Shown here: positions 6,623 through 7,475 of the stretch, piece by piece
How the letters are laid out: each line of letters begins with the position of its first letter
Position numbering within the stretch: position 1 is the first letter of the stretch
Origin: Rhizobium sp. Q54
Lineage (GTDB): Bacteria > Pseudomonadota > Alphaproteobacteria > Rhizobiales > Xanthobacteraceae
Assembly: GCA_945907045.1 (NCBI GenBank)
Contig: CAMDSH010000012.1
Span: 1-64,000 of the forward strand
Reading direction: 5' to 3'
DNA length: 64,000 bases
Notes under the pieces: model-generated
The model's database searches: none
Told to the model about the DNA's origin: nothing
What the model saw: the letters and a program-made list of their open reading frames with translations, nothing else
Made by a program: the position numbers and the translations under genes

Positions 6623-6647
6623 AAGGGCGGCCTTGCGGGCCGCCCTT
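6623..6647. terminator. Intrinsic terminator hairpin downstream of pnp
   Basis: AAGGGCGGCCTTGCGGGCCGCCCTT; identical 25-mer recurs at 7269-7293. Confidence 0.75.
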
Positions 6648-6679
6648 CGCCGTTCTTAGTCTAAGTCTCGCGATTGAGA

Positions 6680-6859
6680 CTAAGCGTACTGGGTCAAAAT
6701 CCAAGTAACCGCCTGATTGTTGTACGGAGGCATACGGTTGCCCTTTGCGATCGGCGCAGTCGTTGAAGGCGTACCTTCAACTTTCCACACGCCGCTTTCA
6801 GGGCAAACTGCTCCTGTACGCGCTTTCGTTCCGATTGGTGTTCTTCCTGAGTAGTTCAT
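6680..6859 (-). CDS. Small 59-aa protein with CPxSGxW motif (unknown function)
   Basis: Translated by hand: MNYSGRTPIGTKARTGAVCPESGVWKVEGTPSTTAPIAKGNRMPPYNNQAVTWILTQYA*; AGGAGGTG Shine-Dalgarno a few nt upstream of ATG; absent from the ORF track (below its length cutoff). Confidence 0.75.
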   Translation of the reverse strand: MNYSGRTPIGTKARTGAVCPESGVWKVEGTPSTTAPIAKGNRMPPYNNQAVTWILTQYA

Positions 6860-6989
6860 GGTCCCACCTCCTGTGGGTTGCTGTTGAGAAGGAGGTCGGG
6901 CCTTGACGTGCGAATCAGGTCCATGATTCAGTGCGTTTGTCCGAATACACGTCGTCCACGGCCCGACCAGGTTATGTGGACTAGGACTT

Positions 6990-7023
6990 GAGGTCGCTCC
7001 GAAGTTCCAATTCGGGCGACCTC
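6990..7023. repeat. Stable stem-loop in the islet
   Basis: GAGGTCGC-T-CCGAA-gttccaa-TTCGG-GCGACCTC, 13 bp paired with one bulge. Confidence 0.55.
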
Positions 7024-7268
7024 ACTTAATTTTGTCCTGCTTAGTTCGTGCAGCGAGTCTGCTTGTTCGGTCAAGCTACGGAACTCAAACGCATTTTCGA
7101 TCAGCGCGCCAAAAAATCCCCTTGTCGCAAAGTGGTTTGCGTAACGACCTGATTTGTCACGTTTAAATCTAGTTCGGCTGGAAGATTGGGCTATTAGTTC
7201 GATCCCGCCGTTAACTTTTTATCCCAGCAATTCACATACTTAACTGCCTTGGCAACAAGCCCGGCCAA

Positions 7269-7293
7269 AAGGGCGGCCTTGCGGGCCGCCCTT
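7269..7293. terminator. Terminator hairpin at the end of the fabI operon, identical to the pnp one
   Basis: AAGGGCGGCCTTGCGGGCCGCCCTT flanked by T-tracts on both strands. Confidence 0.75.
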
Positions 7294-7316: not shown

Positions 7317-7475
7317 TCAGCCCAATCGCCACACCAGCCAGATCGCTACGATCAGCGCGATTGCAAACGCGCCGCTGGCGAGCCGGAACAGATGACGCCG
7401 GATCAGCGCGCGCATGAATCCCTGATCGGACGGCGGATCACGCGGCTCCGGCGGGAGATAGAACGGATCGCTCAT
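7317..7475 (-). CDS. Small single-pass membrane protein (52 aa)
   Basis: Translated by hand: MSDPFYLPPEPRDPPSDQGFMRALIRRHLFRLASGAFAIALIVAIWLVWRLG*; follows fabI on the same strand. Confidence 0.6.
   Translation of the reverse strand: MSDPFYLPPEPRDPPSDQGFMRALIRRHLFRLASGAFAIALIVAIWLVWRLG

What the first reader, a model, noticed from the sequence alone, without database searches (positions are those of the whole stretch)
6623..7293. Non-core islet between pnp and the fabI operon bounded by two identical 25-bp terminator hairpins
AAGGGCGGCCTTGCGGGCCGCCCTT occurs exactly at 6623-6647 and 7269-7293. The ~620 bp between them is visibly more AT-rich than its surroundings and has no long listed ORF. 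It holds a small gene with a near-ideal Shine-Dalgarno plus several stem-loops. This fits a module inserted by recombination at, or duplication of, an intergenic terminator, giving a 'terminator-cargo-terminator' cassette.
Basis: partly seen in the sequence, partly recalled or inferred. Interest (0 to 1): 0.6.

Follow-up and report, generated by a model that had tools for sequence, protein, structure and literature searches.

The report
Imported gene with switch-like RNA leader
Between two copies of a duplicated transcription terminator sits a horizontally acquired gene for a tiny, widely exchanged protein, preceded by a folded RNA leader that appears able to flip between exposing and hiding the gene's ribosome-binding site.

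Summary
The 25-mer occurs only at 6623-6647 and 7269-7293 in the 3.3-Mb genome, and the 621 bp between is the most AT-rich stretch of its size in the window. Same-genus relatives carry ONE terminator hairpin of this design after pnp, so the empty site is real. The cargo is one minus-strand gene (6680-6859, 59 aa), absent from 36 same-genus relatives. Homologues 65-85% identical are scattered through several phyla and plasmids; no curated family claims it. The 'several stem-loops' are a structured 5' leader (6866-7023, minus). In about ten Hyphomicrobiales leaders the same plan recurs: hairpin HP1, pseudoknot helix X:X', helix A:B after a conserved GTCAA, and a B strand that can instead pair with the Shine-Dalgarno. 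Own strands pair far better than swapped ones (p = 5e-5); the motif is not in Rfam. This looks like a translational RNA switch; the ligand is unknown and nothing was tested experimentally. Elsewhere the gene often lies beside CapH+CapP, DNA-damage regulators of defence operons, so a damage or defence role is plausible. The duplicated-terminator boundary was not seen elsewhere.

The parts
6623..6647 (.). Left copy of the 25-bp terminator hairpin; end of the minus-strand small gene (T-rich tail on the minus strand)
   Evidence: exact match, unique pair in genome; terminator scan
6648..7268 (.). Inserted islet, 51.4% GC
   Evidence: lowest-GC 621-bp stretch of the window; absent from relatives, which have a single hairpin
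6680..6859 (-). Small gene, 59 aa, basic beta-protein of an uncurated family
   Evidence: homologues at 65-85% identity; AlphaFold2 pLDDT 88.5
6866..6872 (-). Strand C: Shine-Dalgarno AGGAGGT
   Evidence: sequence; coordinates
6890..6896 (-). Anti-SD bases ACCTCCT, overlapping the 3' end of strand B
   Evidence: complementary to 6866-6872
6894..6902 (-). Strand B (GGCCCGACC), pairs with A
6903..6907 (-). Conserved GTCAA directly 5' of B
   Evidence: conserved in the Hyphomicrobiales leaders
6912..6929 (-). Inner hairpin GAATC-ATGGACCT-GATTC
   Evidence: fold
6954..6959 (-). Strand X' (GTGGAC), immediately 3' of A
6960..6968 (-). Strand A (GGTCGGGCC), pairs with B
6976..6981 (-). Strand X (GTCCAC), pairs with X' across A (pseudoknot)
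6990..7023 (-). Hairpin HP1
   Evidence: recurs in the other leaders
6894..7022 (-). Match to covariance model R1 (a training sequence)
   Evidence: 104.9 bits
7069..7074 (-). Possible -35 element TTGACC, weak
   Evidence: similar TTGAC stretches precede most of the other leaders; no full promoter match
7269..7293 (.). Right copy of the 25-bp terminator hairpin, with T-tract on the fabI side

Best explanation
A single-gene module was acquired horizontally and integrated at the bidirectional terminator between convergent pnp and fabI, leaving a hairpin on each side. It consists of a 59-aa basic beta-protein gene and its own roughly 160-nt 5' leader. The leader folds into HP1, then an H-type pseudoknot (X:X' crossing A:B) with a small branched part and a conserved GTCAA. 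When A pairs with B the Shine-Dalgarno is free and translation is ON; when A:B is absent, B pairs with the Shine-Dalgarno and translation is OFF. The signal that favours A:B is most likely something bound by the pseudoknot domain, a small molecule first, the basic protein itself second. Homologues are often beside CapH+CapP, so the protein is probably a stress, DNA-damage or defence effector. Shown by sequence comparison: the insertion, the empty sites, the patchy distribution, the conserved helices and the B:SD complementarity. Inferred: the direction of the switch, the ligand, and the function of the protein.
For: Hairpin pair unique in genome; single hairpin in relatives; gene absent from 36 genus relatives but 65-85% identical in distant phyla and present in only 7 of 398 genomes of the order; lowest GC of the window. 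Leader: own versus swapped strands p = 5e-5 for each of A:B, X:X' and B:SD; 3-5 standard pair types in each of the first seven A:B pairs; model from 5 leaders finds 3 further leaders; strict descriptor in 8 of 101 leaders against 1 of 748 controls, that one in a positive locus; no Rfam match. CapHP link.
Against: A:B pairing helped to choose the leader set, so its permutation value is biased (X:X' was found afterwards). L124 and L127 fit imperfectly and are not found by the model. Other lineages have other leaders. Scores of the three extra model hits are modest (E 0.003-0.05) and opposite-strand HP1 hits score alike. No clear promoter. No experiment; ligand unknown. A local hairpin CCCAC/GTGGG around the SD (6863-6877) competes in the window fold.
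Confidence: 0.6

Rival explanations
1. Autogenous feedback: the leader is not a metabolite switch but an operator for the 59-aa protein itself, which binds the pseudoknot region and adjusts its own translation.
For: The protein is basic (pI 9.7, 93% of the family above 9); the motif was found only in front of this gene.
Against: Homologues in other lineages have other leaders or CapHP control, although the protein is nearly invariant, so one fixed RNA target is not general.
Confidence: 0.25
2. The leader is structured but passive: HP1 and the pseudoknot protect the mRNA or set a constant translation level, without a signal.
For: Only sequence evidence exists; strong hairpins near 5' ends can stabilise mRNA.
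Against: Strand B is complementary both to A and to the SD, and both pairings are kept by own sequence; a passive role does not need this.
Confidence: 0.2
3. Integration by a site-specific recombinase that uses the terminator palindrome as attachment core, the hairpins being attL and attR of an element now reduced to one gene.
For: 25-bp identical direct repeats flank the islet and an empty site with one copy exists.
Against: No recombinase in the islet; no flanking repeats at 80 other loci of the gene. Homologous or illegitimate recombination would leave the same trace.
Confidence: 0.2
4. The interval is an ordinary conserved pnp-fabI intergenic region with a tandem terminator.
For: Convergent genes often carry several terminators (general knowledge).
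Against: Absent from relatives; protein 65-85% identical to homologues in distant phyla; atypical GC.
Confidence: 0.03

Closest known systems
Translational riboswitches built on an H-type pseudoknot (such as preQ1-II, SAM-II, SAH; from general knowledge)
   Same: 5' leader of one gene; pseudoknot; a strand shared between the folded domain and an anti-Shine-Dalgarno pairing
   Different: No Rfam family matches; HP1, GTCAA and strand order differ; ligand unknown; found only with this gene
Autogenous leaders of ribosomal-protein type
   Same: Structured leader confined to one gene, whose product is small and basic
   Different: The protein is not ribosomal and its homologues mostly have other leaders
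CapH+CapP-controlled operons (Lau et al. 2022, as summarised in PMC13373217)
   Same: Homologues of the gene lie beside CapH/CapP-like pairs in many loci
   Different: No M78 motif anywhere in the window; here a structured leader takes that place
YjzC-like proteins (Pfam PF14168)
   Same: Similar length and a weak profile match along most of the protein
   Different: 13.6 bits against a cut-off of 25; best member E 5e-4

Membership tests
Riboswitch (translational) | Conserved folded domain supported by covariation | tested here: met
   A:B and X:X' own versus swapped p = 5e-5; pair types; RNAalifold recovers HP1 and A:B
Riboswitch (translational) | Expression platform: alternative pairing that hides the Shine-Dalgarno | tested here: met
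   B:SD own versus swapped p = 5e-5; examples. Complementarity only, not function
Riboswitch (translational) | Direct binding of a small molecule | not testable with these tools
   needs in-line probing or binding assay
Any riboswitch or leader family in Rfam 15 | Match at the curated threshold | tested here: not met
YjzC-like (PF14168) | Score at or above the gathering cut-off of 25 bits | tested here: not met
   13.6 bits; best member E 5e-4
CapH+CapP-controlled operon | CapH/CapP pair adjacent to the gene | tested here: not met
   met in many homologous loci, not in the window
Site-specific integrative element | Direct repeats at both ends and an empty site with one copy | tested here: met
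Site-specific integrative element | Own recombinase, and recurrence of the same boundaries at other insertions | tested here: not met
   no further gene in the islet; no flanking repeats elsewhere

The most novel reading that the evidence does not exclude
A new class of pseudoknotted translational riboswitch, so far unlisted, that senses a stress-linked molecule and controls a highly mobile, deeply conserved 55-60 aa protein which elsewhere is controlled by the DNA-damage regulators CapH+CapP: two unrelated control devices for one new stress or defence effector.
Probability: 0.35. Interest if true: 0.8.

Novelty: new variant of a known kind. Interest (0 to 1): 0.62.

Why it matters
It joins three things that can be tested at once: an RNA switch candidate missing from Rfam, a tiny protein exchanged across phyla with little sequence drift and without a curated family, and a recurrent genomic link to DNA-damage-sensing defence regulators. 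The protein's role and the leader's signal can each be used to find the other.

Tried and rejected
Generic terminator repeat: rejected, 2 copies in the genome. Recurrent terminator-flanked cassette: not seen in 80 loci. Known RNA family: none; the chance-level MicX match scores 27.8 against a threshold of 75. Phage gene: no match in 50,697 phage records; 7 loci in the viral-contig collection encode it. Fold: AlphaFold2 gives a confident small beta model (pLDDT 88.5) but no PDB chain at E <= 0.001 and no PDB sequence match. The upstream ORF 6928-7074 (-) looked protein-like by eye, but it has no supported family and its DNA is absent from relatives. A MAFFT alignment of all 10 leaders misplaces the 5' strands, so pairing was tested by position-anchored own-versus-swapped comparison instead. 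Genome scan with the RNA model: the two marginal extra hits are not comparable leaders. The literature library has no paper with the peptide CPESGVW and nothing useful on YjzC.

Full report
Observation. The 25-mer AAGGGCGGCCTTGCGGGCCGCCCTT is at 6623-6647 and 7269-7293 and nowhere else in the 3.3-Mb genome within 3 mismatches. The 621 bp between have 51.4% GC; 621-bp windows average 63.5% (sd 2.5) and the lowest ones overlap the islet. The only convincing gene is on the minus strand, 6680-6859, 59 aa, with AGGAGGTGGGACC before ATG. Its GC3 is 0.51 against 0.87 for pnp and 0.83 for fabI.

Empty site. In same-genus genomes the sequence after pnp contains a single hairpin of the same stem (GGGCGGCC...GGCCGCCC, T-tract), usually 18-36 nt and sometimes 60-150 nt after the stop, with varying loops. 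In L088 and L099 the 52-aa ORF of the window follows directly, and in L086 after about 300 nt. The gene is absent from the 36 genus relatives searched, and the DNA upstream of it occurs in no other of 61 genomes. So the islet was inserted at the terminator, and the terminator was duplicated. The left copy keeps the pnp-side flank; the right copy keeps the T-tract of the fabI side. How it happened is open; 80 other loci of the gene show no such flanking repeat.

The gene. Relatives are 65-85% identical in Proteobacteria, Bacteroidota, Planctomycetes, Actinomycetota and Latescibacterota, with 17 invariant columns in 71 sequences. They occur in 667 plasmid records, most of them partial matches on Klebsiella plasmids, and in no phage record. 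Yet only 7 of 398 genomes of the order, 7 of 385 of the class sample and 1 of 399 of the phylum sample have it, the window's own genome counted each time. High identity with patchy presence points to frequent horizontal exchange. Pfam, NCBIfam, PHROGs and PADLOC give no accepted family; the nearest is YjzC-like, below cut-off. AlphaFold2 predicts a compact beta protein (pLDDT 88.5) without a significant PDB match. The protein is basic (pI 9.7).

Neighbours. In 15 of 81 loci one of the three nearest ORFs on the upstream side is a divergent M78 metallopeptidase with the HExGH motif. Those tested match PADLOC CapP (E 2e-54 to 1e-40) and the HTH partners tested match CapH (3e-25 to 7e-15). Acinetobacter and Rhodococcus plasmids show the same layout. 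Two Phycisphaerales loci have an HTH-M78 fusion upstream, and L012 an M78-UvrD-nuclease fusion. [quoted passage not shown] So the family is probably damage-inducible in those genomes (inference). The window copy has no such neighbour.

The leader. Upstream of the window gene, and of most Hyphomicrobiales homologues without CapHP, lies a structured stretch. The plan, 5' to 3': HP1 hairpin; 16-24 nt linker carrying X; A; X' immediately after A; a small branched part; GTCAA; B; a spacer; SD; ATG. A:B and X:X' cross, so together they are a pseudoknot. B is also complementary to the SD. In the window: X GUCCAC: X' GUGGAC; A GGUCGGGCC: B GGCCCGACC; ACCUCCU at the end of B: SD AGGAGGU.

Tests of the leader. 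With 10 leaders anchored on GTCAA (GTCGA in L124), pairing of own strands beats pairing with strands of the other leaders: A:B 21.4 vs 12.8, X:X' 16.4 vs 10.4, B:SD 17.2 vs 12.5, each p = 5e-5 in 20,000 permutations. The first seven A:B pairs show 3-5 standard pair types each, all standard. RNAalifold on five leaders recovers HP1 and A:B unaided. A covariance model from those five finds L004, L009 and L125 at the right place with E-values of 0.003-0.05 in 469 kb; opposite-strand hits on HP1 hairpins score in the same range. Its two marginal extra hits in 199 genomes of the order are not comparable leaders. A strict X/A/X'/GTCAA/B descriptor is met by 8 of 101 leaders of the gene and by 1 of 748 control upstream regions; that one lies in L061, itself one of the positive loci. 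Window leader energy z = -3.45. Rfam has no match. Caveats: A:B helped to choose the set; L124 and L127 are imperfect; other lineages have other leaders, some also rich in hairpins.

Mechanism proposed. The shared strand B makes two states: A:B with X:X' (SD free, ON) and B:SD (OFF). Which signal chooses between them is unknown. A small molecule bound by the pseudoknot domain, or the basic protein itself, are the main candidates. Transcription of the minus strand probably ends at the left hairpin, which has a T-rich tail on that strand.

Verdict. The insertion is real (about 0.9). The leader is a conserved structured RNA (about 0.85). That it is a translational switch is likely but untested (about 0.65). 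A terminator-flanked cassette as a general mobile unit is not supported.

Noticed in passing
plasmid hits H45-H80: Hundreds of large Klebsiella plasmids carry an unannotated stretch matching only residues 19-59 of the protein (73% identity): a truncated copy or a missed start.
   Followed up: no
L049 4736-4867: A diverged paralogue (TGQDCPATGLWE...GDIIPP...VVWEL) lies just upstream of the gene in a Desulfovibrio, hinting at a larger superfamily with the pattern TG..CP.sG.W...G..PP...W.L.
   Followed up: no
L012 1425-4838; L005 and L063 have upstream ORFs of the same size: A 1138-aa M78 (IrrE-like) + UvrD helicase + PD-(D/E)XK nuclease protein lies directly upstream of the small gene; a multiubiquitin protein follows in L012.
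   Followed up: partly
L046, L047, L058 upstream ORFs: DndB/DpdB-like proteins near the gene, again a defence-type neighbourhood.
   Followed up: no
L011, L029, L038, L039, L041, L043, L045, L051, L065, L066, L071: In Bacteroidota the gene often follows a ~220-aa ORF (a response regulator in L038, preceded by a histidine-kinase-like ORF; read by eye), and a TTACGGxTTTCCGTAA-like palindrome lies upstream of the gene in many.
   Followed up: no
L046, L047, L058, L075, L077, L080 leaders: A second leader type with HP1, a second hairpin and a possible anti-SD (TTACTCC/GGGAGTGA) in sphingomonads, Sinorhizobium and a Pseudomonas.
   Followed up: partly
window 7317-7475 (-): 52-aa ORF with one hydrophobic segment beside the right hairpin; conserved (63-79% identity) next to the pnp terminator in several relatives.
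   Followed up: no
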